This document shows positions 1,702-62,590 of a DNA stretch of 64,000 nt, in pieces (the first letter of the stretch is position 1; the number at the start of each line of letters is the position of its first letter). Location of the stretch: the NCBI RefSeq assembly GCF_015644585.1, contig NZ_JADOBI010000008.1, positions 124,001 through 188,000 of the forward strand. Reading direction: 5' to 3'. The position numbers and the translations under genes were made by a program. The notes under the pieces were generated by a model. It was not told the DNA's origin. It saw nothing but the letters and a program-made list of their open reading frames with translations, and ran no database searches. The DNA comes from Rahnella laticis. Its GTDB lineage: Bacteria; Pseudomonadota; Gammaproteobacteria; Enterobacterales; Enterobacteriaceae.

Positions 1702-1749
1702 TGCAAAACCCCCTCCCGACCTCCCCCTTCGCAGGGGGAGGAGCAAACC
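1702..1749. repeat. GC-rich hairpin repeat, copy 2; possible ydbK terminator
   Basis: Begins AAAACCCCCTCCC and continues into a hairpin with arms CCTCCCCCT and AGGGGGAGG separated by a short TCGC loop. A nearly identical copy is present at 62192-62236. It lies about 60 bp downstream of the ydbK stop codon. Read in the ydbK direction the stem is followed by a G-rich stretch and TTTT, so it could act as a weak terminator. Confidence 0.75.
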
Positions 1750-1805
1750 AATCCGTTGTTATTATTGAGAAAGGTAGGGTGGAGCCCACGACCTTGATTT
1801 AAATC

Positions 1806-9322: not shown

Positions 9323-10105
9323 ATGATAAATTCATCTGAGCAATACCTGGATGAGCAGTACCTGGACGCCCTCGGCGCAACGCAGTCGCTTACCGCAGAA
9401 CAGGCCGCTGAGCTGGAAACCCGGGGTTACGTTATTATTCATAACGTGATCGACAAAGACTGGCTGGAAGAAATGCGCGTGACCTTCGATGCGTTGGTGG
9501 AAAAAGAGGGTGACAATCTGGCCGTTGAGCATCATCAGGAAGCCACCGCGACGCGTATTGCGAACATGATTAACAAAGGTACGGTCTGGGAAAAAGTGTG
9601 GTCGCATCCGCTGATTCTGTCCGTTTGCCGCCACATTTTCCGCGGCGCGTTTAAGGTATCGAGCCTCAATGGCCGCGAAGCGCTGCACCGTGGCGGACAT
9701 CAGCCGCTGCATGCGGACTGGAAAAAGCCGCGTCCGGATTTTCCCAAAGTGCATCTGGTGAACTCCATCTGGGCGATTGACGATCTCAGCGCGGCAAACG
9801 GCGCACCGCGGATTATACCGGGCACGCATCACCGGCCGGAGCTGCCGGAAGATGTCCTGGCAGACGTCGGATTACCGCATCCCGACGAAGTGGTTTTCGA
9901 AGCGCCGGCCGGAAGCGTGATGATTTACGACGCGCACGCCTGGCACGGCGGCACCAACAATACCGTCGGTACACGCCGCCGCGTGCTGCACAGTTTGTAC
10001 ATCGATCGTGAAGATGCGCAGCAGCAGGACCAGCGCAAATGGCTTAAACCGGAAACCGCCAGCCGACTAACCCCGGCGCAAAAATGGCTGCTGGATGTGG
10101 TGTGA
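9323..10105 (+). CDS. PhyH-family Fe(II)/2-oxoglutarate dioxygenase
   Basis: 260 residues of the phytanoyl-CoA dioxygenase superfamily. The metal triad is visible as His130-x-Asp132 (QPLHADW) and His208 (AWHGGTNN), with Arg218 available for 2-oxoglutarate. Such enzymes hydroxylate small molecules using O2 and 2-oxoglutarate; the substrate cannot be told from sequence. The ribosome site GAGGTGGGAA precedes the ATG. Near the N-terminus the peptide EQYLD is directly repeated, reflecting a 15-bp tandem duplication. The stop codon is immediately followed by the composite repeat locus. Confidence 0.85.
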   Translation: MINSSEQYLDEQYLDALGATQSLTAEQAAELETRGYVIIHNVIDKDWLEEMRVTFDALVEKEGDNLAVEHHQEATATRIANMINKGTVWEKVWSHPLILSVCRHIFRGAFKVSSLNGREALHRGGHQPLHADWKKPRPDFPKVHLVNSIWAIDDLSAANGAPRIIPGTHHRPELPEDVLADVGLPHPDEVVFEAPAGSVMIYDAHAWHGGTNNTVGTRRRVLHSLYIDREDAQQQDQRKWLKPETASRLTPAQKWLLDVV

Positions 10106-10112
10106 ATGAAAC

Positions 10113-10415
10113 CGTGGGCGTCGGCTAACACAGGTCAAGACCTTGGGCGTCGCCTAACACAGGTCAAGACCTTGGGCTCGCCGCCCAAACGGGCCTTAAG
10201 TTCAAAGTCGTGGGCGTCGGCCCACACCGACCAAAGACCCGGTAACGCGCGGGTCTCTGGACTCTGCGCTTTTTTAACTGCGCGCTACCGCTCGCTGGCA
10301 CTATTTCAGGTATAACAGCTATTGCCGCGAAAACTTGCCGCTGCGCGGTGCCTTCATTTCGGTGTTCGAGCCCACGGTCTCGAAACTCTCACTCAGCAAG
10401 CTTTCTGAAAGCGGC
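10113..10415 (-). repeat. Composite intergenic repeat, arm A-left
   Basis: Read on the minus strand the arm runs: a CCGCTTTC block, GCACCGCGCAGCGGC, a GTGCCAGCGAGCGGTAGCGC block, a hairpin at 10231-10260 (arms CCAAAGACCCG and CGGGTCTCTGG on the plus strand), then tandem units containing GTTTGGG and CCCAAGGTCTTGA. The last two units are near-identical (AACACAGGTCAAGACCTTGG on the plus strand). It faces arm A-right in inverted orientation. No gene is seen in it. Confidence 0.85.
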
Positions 10416-10489
10416 TGGAGGCTCTATAAAAGATAAAGTCGTTGTCTATTTTTTAGATCAAAATCAGTGAGGTTGTGAATTAAAAGGTC

Positions 10490-10773
10490 TGTGGCCGCTT
10501 TCGAAACGACGTCGAATGAATGGTGAGAAACAGCGAGAGTCTTTTTTCGAGCAGGTTCGAACCTGAAATGAGAGCACCGCGCAGCGGCGGCGTTTGCGGC
10601 ACTAGCCGGAGTTGCTGAAACAGTGCCAGCGAGCGGTAGCGCGCAGTGAAAGAGCCGGAGATTCTAAAGAGGCGCGGCGACAGGCGCCTCTTTAGGCCAG
10701 TTTGGGTGGCAACCCAAGGTCTTGATTTTGACCCGAGGCCAGTTTGGGTGGCAACCCAAGGTCTTGATTTTGA
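10490..10773 (+). repeat. Composite intergenic repeat, arm A-right
   Basis: Same order of blocks as the other arms: GGCCGCTTTC, GCACCGCGCAGCGGC, GCCAGCGAGCGGTAGCGCGC, then a perfect 12-bp hairpin at 10664-10695 (CTAAAGAGGCGC / GCGCCTCTTTAG). Two identical 37-bp units follow at 10695-10731 and 10737-10773, each with a TTGGGT-GGCA-ACCCAA hairpin followed by GGTCTTGATTTTGA. The arm ends 39 bp before the araC-type gene. Confidence 0.9.
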
Positions 10774-10812
10774 TGGCAAGATTCAATGCAATTGAAAAAC
10801 TGAGAGAACACC

Positions 10813-11655
10813 ATGCTGCCCGTTGTGATAGACACACTTTTCCGATCGTTTTGTGGCGGTGAAGCGCAGGCCGTGCGCTTTCCGGATAACACACAACCCA
10901 TGCCCGAACTGGCGTTGCTGGTCAGTTTCCCGCGCATCGAATTTGTGGTCAGAGGCCACGTTCATGACCGCAGTCTCCCGGCTGAAAAGGGCTTACTGAA
11001 AGAGGGCGAAGCGCTGTATATCCCCGGCGGTAAATGGAATCTCACTCAGTGGAGCGCGCCCGCCGTGCTGCTGAGCATATTGTTCAGCAAAGAAAAACTC
11101 GGTTTCAGCCTGCAATCCTGGGACGGCAACCGGTTTTCCGCAACGGACAAACAAAGCGTTGCCCGGCTGGGGCCGCGCGTCGGTTCGTTTTTATTGCAGG
11201 CGATGAATGAAATCGTTTCAAACCCGGATGACCAGCAAACCGCCCGCTGCGTGGTCGCCGGTTTACTGAGCCATTGTCAGGAACAGCTGGCGAACCGCAC
11301 ACAAATTCTGACCCGCAGCGGCGCGCTGTTTGAAGTGATGAAGAAATACATCGAGGAAAATGCCTCGCTGCCGCTGACCCGCGAAAACGTGGCGAAACGG
11401 TTCCATATCACGCCGAACTACCTGTCACATCTTTTCCGAAAATCCGGCGATACCGGTTTCAGCGAATACCTCAACCATGTCCGGCTGGAACGGGCAAAAC
11501 TGCTGCTGAAAGGCTATGAACTGAAGATTAAAGAAGTGGCGAGCAGCTGCGGATTTACCGACAGCAATTATTTTTGCCGCGTGTTCCGTAAAAGCACCGC
11601 GCGATCGCCTTCGCAATACCGCAGCCAGTGGCTGAGCCAGCATCCCGAAAAGTAA
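10813..11655 (+). CDS. AraC-family transcriptional regulator
   Basis: 280 residues. The N-terminal ~165 residues form a cupin-like sensor domain (ELALLVSFPRIEFVVRGHV, GEALYIPGGKWN). The C-terminal ~100 residues hold two helix-turn-helix motifs (LTRENVAKRFHITPNYLSHL and IKEVASSCGFTDSNYFCRVF). The target is unknown; the alcohol dehydrogenase 99 bp downstream, with an operator-like palindrome, is one candidate. The upstream side is fully occupied by the composite repeat, so its promoter must lie in or next to that repeat. Confidence 0.88.
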   Translation: MLPVVIDTLFRSFCGGEAQAVRFPDNTQPMPELALLVSFPRIEFVVRGHVHDRSLPAEKGLLKEGEALYIPGGKWNLTQWSAPAVLLSILFSKEKLGFSLQSWDGNRFSATDKQSVARLGPRVGSFLLQAMNEIVSNPDDQQTARCVVAGLLSHCQEQLANRTQILTRSGALFEVMKKYIEENASLPLTRENVAKRFHITPNYLSHLFRKSGDTGFSEYLNHVRLERAKLLLKGYELKIKEVASSCGFTDSNYFCRVFRKSTARSPSQYRSQWLSQHPEK

Positions 11656-55689: not shown

Positions 55690-55905
55690 GCTCAGCGGCT
55701 GACGCCGAAACCGACCAAAGAGGCCCAGGACGGGGCCTCTTTGGAATCTCCACGTCTTTTCAACACGCGCTATCGCTGGGTCGATGGACATGTTCTGACG
55801 CACCGACGCGTGGCGCGAAATCTTGCCGCTACGCGGTGCCTTCATTTCGGTCTTCGAGCCATAGGTCTCGAAACGCTCATTCAGCAAAATTTTTGAGCGC
55901 GCCAG
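55690..55905 (-). repeat. Composite intergenic repeat, arm B-left
   Basis: On the minus strand it has GGCACCGCGTAGCGGC and a perfect 12-bp hairpin at 55715-55744 (CCAAAGAGGCCC / GGGCCTCTTTGG). It lacks the tandem TTTGGG-CCCAA units that end the other arms, so it looks truncated. It faces B-right in inverted orientation. No gene is seen. Confidence 0.8.
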
Positions 55906-55959: not shown

Positions 55960-56240
55960 GGCCGCTTTCAAAAATCACGCTGGAAGGAGAGGTGGAAAAC
56001 CGCGTATTTTTTTCGCGCGGTTTGTAATCCGACTGGAAGGCACCGCGCAGCGGCGGGATTTTGCGGCACTAGCCGTAGTTACTGAAACATAGCCAGCGAG
56101 CGATAGCGCGCAGTAAAAGAGCCGGAGATTCTTAAGAGGCGCGGCGACAGGCGCCTCTTAAGGCCAGTTTGGGTGGCAACCCAAGGTCTTGATTTTGACC
56201 TGAAGCCAGTTTGGGTGGCAACCCAAGGTCTTGATGTTCG
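55960..56240 (+). repeat. Composite intergenic repeat, arm B-right
   Basis: Starts GGCCGCTTTC, then GGCACCGCGCAGCGGCGGGA, ATAGCCAGCGAGCGATAGC, and a perfect 12-bp hairpin at 56131-56162 (CTTAAGAGGCGC / GCGCCTCTTAAG). Two units of TTTGGGTGGCAACCCAAGG followed by TCTTGAT repeat with a 42-bp period at 56162-56240. Very close to A-right, but the hairpin differs by compensated changes. Confidence 0.9.
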
Positions 56241-61843: not shown

Positions 61844-62191
61844 GTTAGTCCATTAAACAGTAAGTTATTACATTCTTTTCTAAGCTTTCTATCGCCATTC
61901 TTTAGCACTTTCTAATACCCGCTAATATACTCCCGTGGCTAGCGTGGGTATAATGCAAAGAATCCATGCATTATGGATGATGTATAGATTTGAAAAATTA
62001 TCTGTTCTTCTTAATTATGTGAGTATATATGAGGGTTTGTGCAGCGCCTGAATACAATGTCATTTTAAAGGGATTAATCTCCTCAAATCTTTATTCAATG
62101 AATTCAGAAATAAACCTTCTGATTTGAAATGCAAGCTTCATGAGTAAAGTTACAATGAGTTGATGCAAAAAAATGATATCTTGTAGTCGTT
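61844..62191. other. AT-rich gap upstream of the Hcp unit
   Basis: About 350 AT-rich bases with no supported gene. It must hold the promoter for the three-gene unit, and a weak inverted TATAC...GTATA stem near 61926-61951. Nothing else is recognised. Confidence 0.4.
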
Positions 62192-62236
62192 GTAAAACCC
62201 CCTCCCAGCCTCCCCCTTCGCAGGGGGAGGTGCAAA
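62192..62236. repeat. GC-rich hairpin repeat, copy 3
   Basis: Nearly the same as the element at 1702-1749: AAAACCCCCTCCC, then the hairpin CCTCCCCCTTCGCAGGGGG. It sits inside an otherwise AT-rich stretch, 80 bp before composite repeat C. Confidence 0.8.
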
Positions 62237-62315
62237 TAAATATACAATTATTAAATTGTATTCCGAAAAATAACTGGCAAAAACCCCAAGCAGATCTTCC
62301 GAATTACATAGCCTC

Positions 62316-62590
62316 TAGCCGCTTTCAAAAATCACGCTGAAAGGAGAGGTGGAAAACCGCGACTCTTTTCGCGCGGTTTGAAACCCGAGTGAAGGGAACC
62401 GCGCAGCGGCGGGATTTTGCGGCAATAGCAGAAGTTACTGAAACATAGCCAGCAAGCGGTAGCGCGCAGTTAAAAGCGTGGGTGTCCAGAGGGCGCGCGC
62501 GTTAACGCGCCCTTTGGGCCAGTTTGGGCGGCGAGACCAAGGTCTTGATTTTGGCCTGAAGCCAGTTTGGGTGGCAACCCAGATTGTTGC
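62316..62590 (+). repeat. Composite intergenic repeat, single arm C
   Basis: Same blocks as B-right: GCCGCTTTCAAAAATCACGC, AACCGCGCAGCGGCGGGA, ATAGCCAGCAAGCGGTAGCG, a hairpin at 62486-62517 (CCAGAGGGCGCG / CGCGCCCTTTGG, with one G-T pair), then two tandem units containing CAGTTTGGG. No inverted partner is present. It ends about 17 bp from the DUF1989 stop codon. Confidence 0.85.

What the first reader, a model, noticed from the sequence alone, without database searches (positions are those of the whole stretch)
10113..10773. Inverted pair of composite intergenic repeats with hairpins that change together
Two arms of about 300 bp face each other between the PhyH gene and the araC-type gene. 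Both hold the same order of blocks, and each has a hairpin in the same place. The hairpin sequence differs (AAGACCCG/CGGGTCT in one, CTAAAGAGGCGC/GCGCCTCTTTAG in the other), yet pairing is kept. The same is true of the arms at 55.7-56.2 and 62.3 kb (five arms in all). Small hairpins in the tail units change the same way (TTGGGT/ACCCAA and TTGGGC/GCCCAA). Change with kept pairing points to selection on an RNA or single-stranded DNA structure. The arms are far longer than REP or ERIC units and I do not recognise the family.
Basis: seen in the sequence. Interest (0 to 1): 0.78.

Follow-up and report, generated by a model that had tools for sequence, protein, structure and literature searches.

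The report
Paired gene-end repeats with triplex signature
A family of paired repeats at gene ends in the bacterium Rahnella carries hairpins whose two strands, plus a third stretch beside them, change together as if they fold into a three-stranded DNA structure; this suggests, though it does not prove, that evolution preserves such a structure in living cells.

Summary
In detail: all five arms are there, and inverted arm pairs of this kind recur at 54 or more loci of this Rahnella genome and in all 14 Rahnella genomes searched. Hairpin covariation is massive: 87 distinct stems among 264 hairpins, 2-4 Watson-Crick types at each of the 11 inner pairs. The new finding is that the ~8 nt just 5' of each stem mirrors the stem's purine strand and changes with it (416 of 656 identities against 288, sd 10, permuted): the signature of a class I purine-motif intrastrand triplex. 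The best subfamily (loop AGCAC) matches 146 of 192 stem differences in the third strand (permuted mean 40, maximum 98); one subfamily shows no effect. G.T (129) against A.C (3) names the folding strand, the one running outward from each core. Purine-motif triplexes are reported not to form in RNA, so single-stranded DNA is favoured. None of 92 classed loci lies between divergent genes; the elements cluster at the replication terminus in the one chromosome examined; hairpins differ between species at shared sites; one element is inverted. Function is inferred. Nearest known are BoxC/PIT/TM triplex repeats, differing in class, size and sequence freedom.

The parts
10203..10358 (-). element 1, left arm, profile match (core to first tail unit; arm strand is minus)
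   Evidence: L062 1004-1159
10231..10260 (-). stem-loop of left arm, CCAGAGACCCG-cgcgttac-CGGGTCTTTGG on the arm strand
10261..10268 (-). putative third strand, CGCAGAGT on the arm strand, mirror of stem AGAGAC
10421..10545 (.). middle segment between the two arms
10567..10724 (+). element 1, right arm, profile match
   Evidence: L062 1368-1525
10656..10663 (+). putative third strand of right arm, CGGAGATT
10664..10695 (+). stem-loop of right arm, CTAAAGAGGCGC-ggcgacag-GCGCCTCTTTAG
10696..10773 (+). right tail: two units with TTGGGT/ACCCAA hairpins
55693..55847 (-). element 2, left arm, profile match
   Evidence: L065 894-1048
55715..55744 (-). element 2, left stem-loop, CCAAAGAGGCCC/GGGCCTCTTTGG
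55745..55752 (-). element 2, left putative third strand
56034..56191 (+). element 2, right arm, profile match
   Evidence: L065 1235-1392
56123..56130 (+). element 2, right putative third strand, CGGAGATT
56131..56162 (+). element 2, right stem-loop, CTTAAGAGGCGC/GCGCCTCTTAAG
62391..62547 (+). element 3, single arm, profile match
   Evidence: L093 1092-1248
62478..62485 (+). element 3, putative third strand
62486..62517 (+). element 3, stem-loop, CCAGAGGGCGCG/CGCGCCCTTTGG

Best explanation
Each element is a dispersed intergenic repeat of two arms facing each other (452-659 bp between the outer ends of the two profile matches in the own genome, plus tails). Each arm holds, on the strand running from its core outward to its tail, an A-tract, an ~8 nt purine-rich third strand, a stem-loop of 9-15 pairs with a purine-rich 5' strand, and tail hairpins. 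When that strand is single, the stem-loop forms and the 5' purine stretch folds back antiparallel into its major groove (G*G.C, A*A.T, T*A.T triads): a class I purine-motif intrastrand DNA triplex. Selection acts on the ability to form this structure, not on its sequence. SHOWN from sequence: stem covariation, third-strand covariation, strand bias, arm pairing, gene-end location, sites shared between species, hairpin replacement at shared sites, one in-place inversion, and clustering at the terminus in one chromosome. INFERRED: that the structure forms in single-stranded DNA at the replication fork, hinders polymerase and invites recombination, so that hairpins are exchanged and the elements spread; and that the family persists either as a selfish, structure-dependent repeat or because fork pausing or recombination near the terminus is useful.
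For: Third strand: with the register taken from the stem search alone, 416 of 656 mirror identities over 82 distinct combinations against 288 (sd 10.3) permuted, z 12.4. With +-2 register freedom in data and null alike, 270 of 376 against 207 (sd 6.3) in the own genome, z 10. Mirror z 12.6 against direct repeat z 6.4 over 103 distinct junctions. Stem differences matched in the third strand, register from the stem alone: loop AGCAC 146 of 192 (permuted mean 40, maximum 98), C 193 of 277 (maximum 161), A/F 203 of 580 (maximum 144), none of 1000 permutations reaching these; G 32 of 67 (3 of 1000 reach it). Seen in combinations absent from the own genome: G108/G104 91 of 128 against 53.7 (sd 6.0); another genus, G024, 73 of 112 against 52.2 (sd 3.6). 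The rival outer stem shows no excess, z 1.0. G.T 129 against A.C 3 over four genome sets, both scored alike (sum tested). The arm strand has the lower RNA folding energy in 75 of 77 distinct segments. Purine-motif triplexes are stated not to form in RNA (PMC4666352, introduction). Instability: of 59 orthologous arm comparisons (31 locus pairs) 23 are identical in third strand and hairpin and up to 21 differ in type; 8 of 31 with core identity of 0.9 or more have hairpin identity under 0.8; one element inverted in place, L086/L241. Terminus: 31 of 52 G108 chromosomal loci within 464 kb of dif, 10.4 expected.
Against: No biophysical or in vivo data. For the related TM motif, in vivo DMS footprinting did not show the triplex (PMC4666352, discussion). 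Loop class B/E shows no third-strand effect with the register from the stem alone (9 of 54 matched, 304 of 1000 permutations reach it). In the large class A/F only 203 of 580 stem differences are matched, and mirror and direct repeat are not distinguished there (z 4.2 and 4.6); in class C with free register neither is significant (z 0.9 and 0.5). New combinations of G035/G118/G100 give only z 2.8 (54 of 80 against 44.2). Tests, and the change counts, used a register chosen per arm for the best mirror match and are inflated. The outer-stem test let 25 registers compete and is nearly saturated (318 of 392 against 315), so it is a weak negative. Permutation does not remove shared descent or exchange of whole hairpins. 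Over all 59 comparisons the hairpin is not more divergent than core or tail (0.85, 0.87, 0.86). Location at gene 3' ends does not follow from a DNA-only model. Terminus clustering was measured in one chromosome and could reflect weaker constraint there.
Confidence: 0.6

Rival explanations
1. RNA element at gene 3' ends: transcripts running into the element from the flanking genes fold into hairpins that end transcription or protect the mRNA, and the third stretch is incidental.
For: Two-arm loci lie between convergent genes in 25 of 40 (own), 25 of 39 (G108) and 8 of 13 (G104) and between divergent genes in none; among the window's ORFs 4 of 31 adjacent pairs are convergent and 9 divergent. 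At the window site the five congeners read by eye (of nine without the element) and at the L068 site eight congeners have short intergenic sequence with a hairpin or terminator-like stretch instead. On the gene-sense strand a T-tract follows the hairpin. Element 1 holds more terminator-like matches than shuffles (5 against 1.7, sd 1.2), two of them in the arm cores facing inward.
Against: On the gene-sense strand the wobbles become A.C mismatches (129 against 3). The T-tract starts a median 12 nt (8-13) beyond the stem in the 86 of 96 arms that have one within 26 nt, far for a classical terminator; of the five matches only one, of 5 pairs, overlaps a main hairpin. It does not explain third-strand covariation.
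Confidence: 0.2
2. Outward RNA: promoters in the middle segment drive transcripts along the arm strand, antisense to the flanking genes, and the hairpin works as RNA.
For: Strand bias and fold energies favour the arm strand; G.U pairs are natural in RNA. The two tail hairpins of the right arm of element 1 are terminator-like in the outward direction.
Against: Only one promoter-like match in 10000-10900, on the minus strand in the right tail (0.4 expected; sigma-70 consensus only). Purine-motif third strands are reported not to bind in RNA (PMC4666352, introduction).
Confidence: 0.1
3. No selection: hairpins are rewritten by template switching (quasi-palindrome correction, recalled) and exchanged as blocks by gene conversion, so covariation is a by-product of mutation.
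For: Whole hairpins differ between orthologous elements; template switching can make perfect stems.
Against: Template switching copies complement, so it makes inverted or direct repeats, not mirror repeats, and gives no reason for G.T without A.C. Loop family AGCAC shows nine purine patterns, each matched on the three strands.
Confidence: 0.1

Closest known systems
BoxC / PIT / TM_ECO intrastrand triplex repeats (Hoyne 2000 as cited in Holder 2015, PMC4666352)
   Same: Intergenic, dispersed, purine-motif intrastrand triplex potential; in E. coli five inverted pairs, always one type A with one type B; here same-type partners are also rare (2 of 43 pairs, 8.2 expected, P 0.004). Of 46 listed TM copies on the G108 chromosome 15 lie within 1.2 kb of an arm locus.
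   Different: TM is about 37 nt, class II (Y-R-R), with very uniform sequence; here the triplex would be class I (R-R-Y), its sequence is free, and it sits in long arms with a conserved core and tails. The paper reports TM more often upstream than downstream of ORFs; none of 92 classed loci here lies between divergent genes.
REP / BIME / REPIN elements with RAYT transposase
   Same: Imperfect palindromes in inverted pairs in intergenic DNA, mosaic composition.
   Different: Far longer arms, variable stem sequence, no conserved tag at the hairpin foot; the only RAYT-like match in the genome is broken.
Enterobacterial small repeats RU-1 (ERIC), RU-2, RU-3, YPAL
   Same: Dispersed intergenic repeats in Enterobacterales.
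   Different: RU units are 103-168 bp (abstract start in the listing; that RU-1 is ERIC and all about YPAL is recalled). No direct sequence comparison with them was made; the window has no Rfam match at gathering score.
Integron attC sites (recalled)
   Same: Single-stranded DNA hairpins in which structure is kept while sequence varies.
   Different: No integrase or cassette array was looked for; here a third strand is involved.

Membership tests
Class I purine-motif intrastrand triplex | order reverse-Hoogsteen strand, purine strand, pyrimidine strand on one DNA strand | tested here: met
   not evident in loop class B/E
Class I purine-motif intrastrand triplex | G*G.C, A*A.T or T*A.T triads | tested here: met
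   436 of 525 in the first seven positions over 75 distinct combinations, registers chosen for best mirror match; weaker in A/F
Class I purine-motif intrastrand triplex | forms a triplex physically | not testable with these tools
   needs CD/NMR/footprinting
BoxC/PIT/TM_ECO | Y-R-R order with pattern CCCTCNCCC...GGGNGAGGG...GGGNGAGGG | tested here: not met
   arm hairpins are R-R-Y with other sequences (by eye; pattern read in section 16 of PMC4666352)
REP/BIME | 20-40 bp palindrome with a GTAG or CGTC tag at its foot | tested here: not met
   arms of about 150 bp; a GTAG varies to ATAG and GCAG and lies some 25-30 nt before the stem (alignment, by eye)
REP/BIME | RAYT (Y1) transposase in the genome | tested here: inconclusive
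   one Pfam match with three stops
MITE | terminal inverted repeats and target-site duplication at a clean empty site | tested here: inconclusive
   inverted arms yes; eight congeners have 72-81 bp at the L068 site, replaced rather than duplicated in the own genome, but flanks are only 81-85% identical
Intrinsic terminator | G+C-rich stem directly followed by a U-tract on the gene-sense strand | tested here: not met
   for the main hairpin: U-tract a median 12 nt away in 86 of 96 arms; core hairpins do score as terminator-like
Rfam families | covariance-model match at gathering score | tested here: not met
   none in the window

The most novel reading that the evidence does not exclude
A natural DNA triple helix for which comparative sequence evidence shows selection on all three strands: a repeat family that keeps its triplex-forming ability while its sequence turns over, sits at gene ends, gathers around the replication terminus and behaves as a recombination module.
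Probability: 0.5. Interest if true: 0.9.

Novelty: new variant of a known kind. Interest (0 to 1): 0.78.

Why it matters
Whether intrastrand DNA triplexes form and matter in living cells is open; the paper read here found the TM triplex stable in vitro but its in vivo footprinting did not support stable formation. Uniform TM sequences leave little room for covariation. This family offers dozens of naturally varied three-strand combinations, so the question becomes testable by comparison and by simple oligonucleotide and reporter experiments. It also gives a concrete case of hairpin-sized sequence replacement at shared sites and of an inverted intergenic repeat.

Tried and rejected
Arm-to-arm pairing as the selected feature: rejected; partner cores are 72.3% alike against 75.5% (sd 1.0) for shuffled partners, z -3.2, and same-type partners are avoided. 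Outer stem between the third-strand stretch and the sequence after the hairpin: no excess, in a weak test. Intrinsic terminator: see rival 1. RAYT mobilisation: only a broken match. Viral or broad plasmid carriage: no viral contig holds the exact core pattern; 8 plasmid records, all Rahnella. Seven searches of the open-licence library found no account of this family; apart from PMC4666352 only listings were seen. Of PMC4666352 I saw the abstract, sections 14, 15, 16 and 18, the first of two parts of sections 3 and 20, and passages. The MAFFT alignments A1 and A2 misalign the stem registers of different hairpin types by 1-2 columns, so pair counts were made by script and no R-scape-like test was run on them.

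Rows dropped: arm L070- was left out of third-strand tests because the script picked a tail hairpin. No stem of 9 or more was found in 1 of 118 arms of G108/G104, 5 of 34 of G024 and 2 of 24 of G035/G118/G100. Two arms (L194+ and L194-) were fitted in a wrong register and kept. In one search five of the 21 'different type' cases involve a hairpin that my labels left as '?', so 21 is an upper figure; three comparisons were missing, and five own loci were compared with two relatives each. Gene contexts rest on ORFs of 120 aa or more chosen by length, not on annotation.

Full report
OBSERVATION. The window contains five arms. I take the genome it lies in (G000, 5.73 Mb, 23 contigs) to be a Rahnella: four same-genus genomes have contigs of exactly the length of named records (G104 and Rahnella sp. 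AA; G108 C2 and a R. sikkimica plasmid; G035 and R. inusitata; G118 and R. rivi). An exact core pattern, scanned over one genome for each of 84,980 species, returned 35 stretches, 34 of Rahnella records and one of Hafnia psychrotolerans; an exact pattern misses diverged arms. Two searches of the own genome gave 54 loci (each scored 40 first-look candidates), fetched as L062-L114. A profile built from them finds 97 near-full arms: 43 facing pairs and 11 single arms. A sequence-only profile finds 119 arm matches in the own genome and 12 to 99 in each of the other 13 Rahnella genomes (150 candidates scored in each). In the family, 4 of 99 genomes match: the own and one other Rahnella, G024 of another genus with 31 (all 31 scored), and one weak match in G080; BLAST with one arm had given the first three and a 28-base match in G011. 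No viral contig carries the exact core pattern.

ANATOMY. Going outward from the middle, each arm has a conserved core (with a small hairpin that changes from CCGC/GCGG to GCAC/GTGC in 2 of the 47 aligned arms, by eye), an A-tract, the ~8 nt third-strand stretch, the main stem-loop, and tail units with small hairpins. My script sorts the hairpins into seven types by loop; partners of one element are rarely of the same type (2 of 43, 8.2 expected, P 0.004) and A-A never occurs (3.8 expected, P 0.004). Partner cores are less alike than those of shuffled partners (z -3.2). The arms of element 1 form a huge joint hairpin on paper, but nothing shows that joint pairing is maintained.

STEM COVARIATION AND STRAND. 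Scoring G.T and A.C alike, stems hold 1114 Watson-Crick, 59 G.T, 2 A.C and 3 other pairs in the own genome (97 arms); 1365, 59, 1 and 2 in G108 and G104 (117 of 118 arms); 335, 6, 0 and 1 in G024 (29 of 34 arms) and 249, 5, 0 and 3 in G035, G118 and G100 (22 of 24 arms). So G.T outnumbers A.C 129 to 3 when read on the strand that runs from core to tail. These counts include copies related by descent; among the 49 distinct own hairpins it is 21 to 2. Stems were found by a best-hairpin search, so high pairing is partly by construction; shuffled segments reach a mean score of 9.7 against 22.4. Of 87 distinct stems, each of the inner 11 pairs shows 2-4 Watson-Crick types.

THE THIRD STRAND. The stretch just 5' of the stem reads as the mirror image of the stem's purine strand. 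Examples with the same loop AGCAC, third strand read backwards: AAAGGGG, GAGGAGG, GAGAGGA, AGAGAGG, AAGGAGG, AAAGAGG, AGGGAGG, AAGGGGG, AGAGGGA, each facing the identical stem sequence. The cleanest test takes the register from the stem search alone: 416 of 656 identities over 82 distinct combinations of all genomes against 288 (sd 10.3, maximum of 5000 permutations 329). By loop family, stem differences matched in the third strand were 146 of 192 (AGCAC; permuted maximum 98), 193 of 277 (C; 161), 203 of 580 (A/F; 144), 32 of 67 (G; maximum 34, reached by 3 of 1000) and 9 of 54 (B/E; reached by 304 of 1000). So four families show it and B/E does not. With +-2 register freedom in data and null the own genome gives 270 of 376 against 207 (sd 6.3). 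Against a direct repeat, which would let the stretch pair with the pyrimidine strand instead: over 103 distinct junctions mirror z 12.6, direct z 6.4; by family AGCAC 7.0 and 3.2, A/F 4.2 and 4.6, C 0.9 and 0.5. Mirror is thus clearly preferred overall and in AGCAC, undecided in A/F and C. Tests with the register chosen per arm for the best mirror match are inflated; they show the effect in combinations absent from the own genome (G108/G104 z 6.2, G024 z 5.7, the other three Rahnella z 2.8). The competing outer stem shows no excess (z 1.0; a nearly saturated test).

WHY DNA. A purine third strand antiparallel to the stem purine strand is the purine motif; order third strand, purine, pyrimidine is class I (PMC4666352, introduction). 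That paper states that purine-motif triplexes cannot form in RNA. Together with the G.T strand bias this points to the single-stranded arm strand of DNA. It is an inference from sequence; nothing was measured.

SURROUNDINGS AND HISTORY. Two-arm loci are convergent in 25 of 40 (own), 25 of 39 (G108) and 8 of 13 (G104) cases and divergent in none; many loci are shared, so these are not independent. In 31 locus pairs both flanks of an own element match those of a G108 or G104 element, mostly at 88-97% identity. Nine congeners lack element 1 at the window site (I read the intergenic sequence of five). At the L068 site the own genome and G104 have an element and eight others have 72-81 bp with a short hairpin, so arrival replaced sequence. 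At the L089 site 2 of 12 congeners carry arms (L298 two, L303 one). At shared sites hairpins turn over: of 59 arm comparisons 23 are identical in third strand and hairpin and up to 21 differ in type. In 8 of 31 with core identity of 0.9 or more the hairpin is under 0.8; in the right arm of L103/L230 the change is confined to the A-tract and hairpin between nearly identical sequence. On average over all 59 the hairpin is not more divergent than core or tail (0.85, 0.87, 0.86), so replacement affects whole arms as well. L086/L241 is an in-place inversion: flanks align in one orientation, the element interior in the other at 85-96%.

TERMINUS. A dif-like site occurs once in each of four Rahnella genomes searched (consensus recalled, up to 3 mismatches). 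In G108, 31 of 52 chromosomal loci lie within 464 kb of it (10.4 expected, P 5e-10) and 22 within 232 kb (5.2 expected) (chromosome length as printed, rounded). Of 46 TM copies on that chromosome typed from the listing, 15 lie within 1.2 kb of an arm locus; of the 31 others 9 are within 464 kb (Fisher against arms P 0.012). One chromosome only.

MECHANISM AND VERDICT. The best reading is a repeat family selected for, or propagated through, a class I triplex in single-stranded DNA, with fork hindrance and recombination as the likely consequence. A 3'-end RNA role is the main rival: location and some terminator-like matches favour it, strand bias, U-tract distance and third-strand evidence oppose it. 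The family is not BoxC/PIT/TM or REP by the tests listed and the window matches no Rfam family; it would work like the first. Novelty: new variant of a known kind.

Noticed in passing
window 1702-1752 and 62191-62241: Two copies of a BoxC/PIT/TM-like element (CCTCCCCCTTCGCAGGGGGAGG core), one directly beside the single arm at 62.3 kb; the pattern (up to 3 mismatches) matches 46 times forward and 45 reverse in the own genome (near-palindrome, so most copies count twice).
   Followed up: partly
G000:C21:250093-250392 (L061): The only Y1/RAYT-type transposase match of the genome is broken by three stops.
   Followed up: no
L103, L230, L101, L220 outside the tails: Beyond C/D-type tails, tandem units of about 40 bp with a GAGAA...TTTCTC hairpin vary in copy number between species (by eye).
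   Followed up: no
L288-L295, intergenic 72-81 bp: Short hairpins at the empty site differ between species yet mostly stay paired (CCTCCCC...GGGGAGG variants, by eye).
   Followed up: no
middle segments, e.g. L195, L102, L086, L101: TM elements, sometimes two facing ones, are present in the middle segment of one species' element and absent from the ortholog (by eye).
   Followed up: partly
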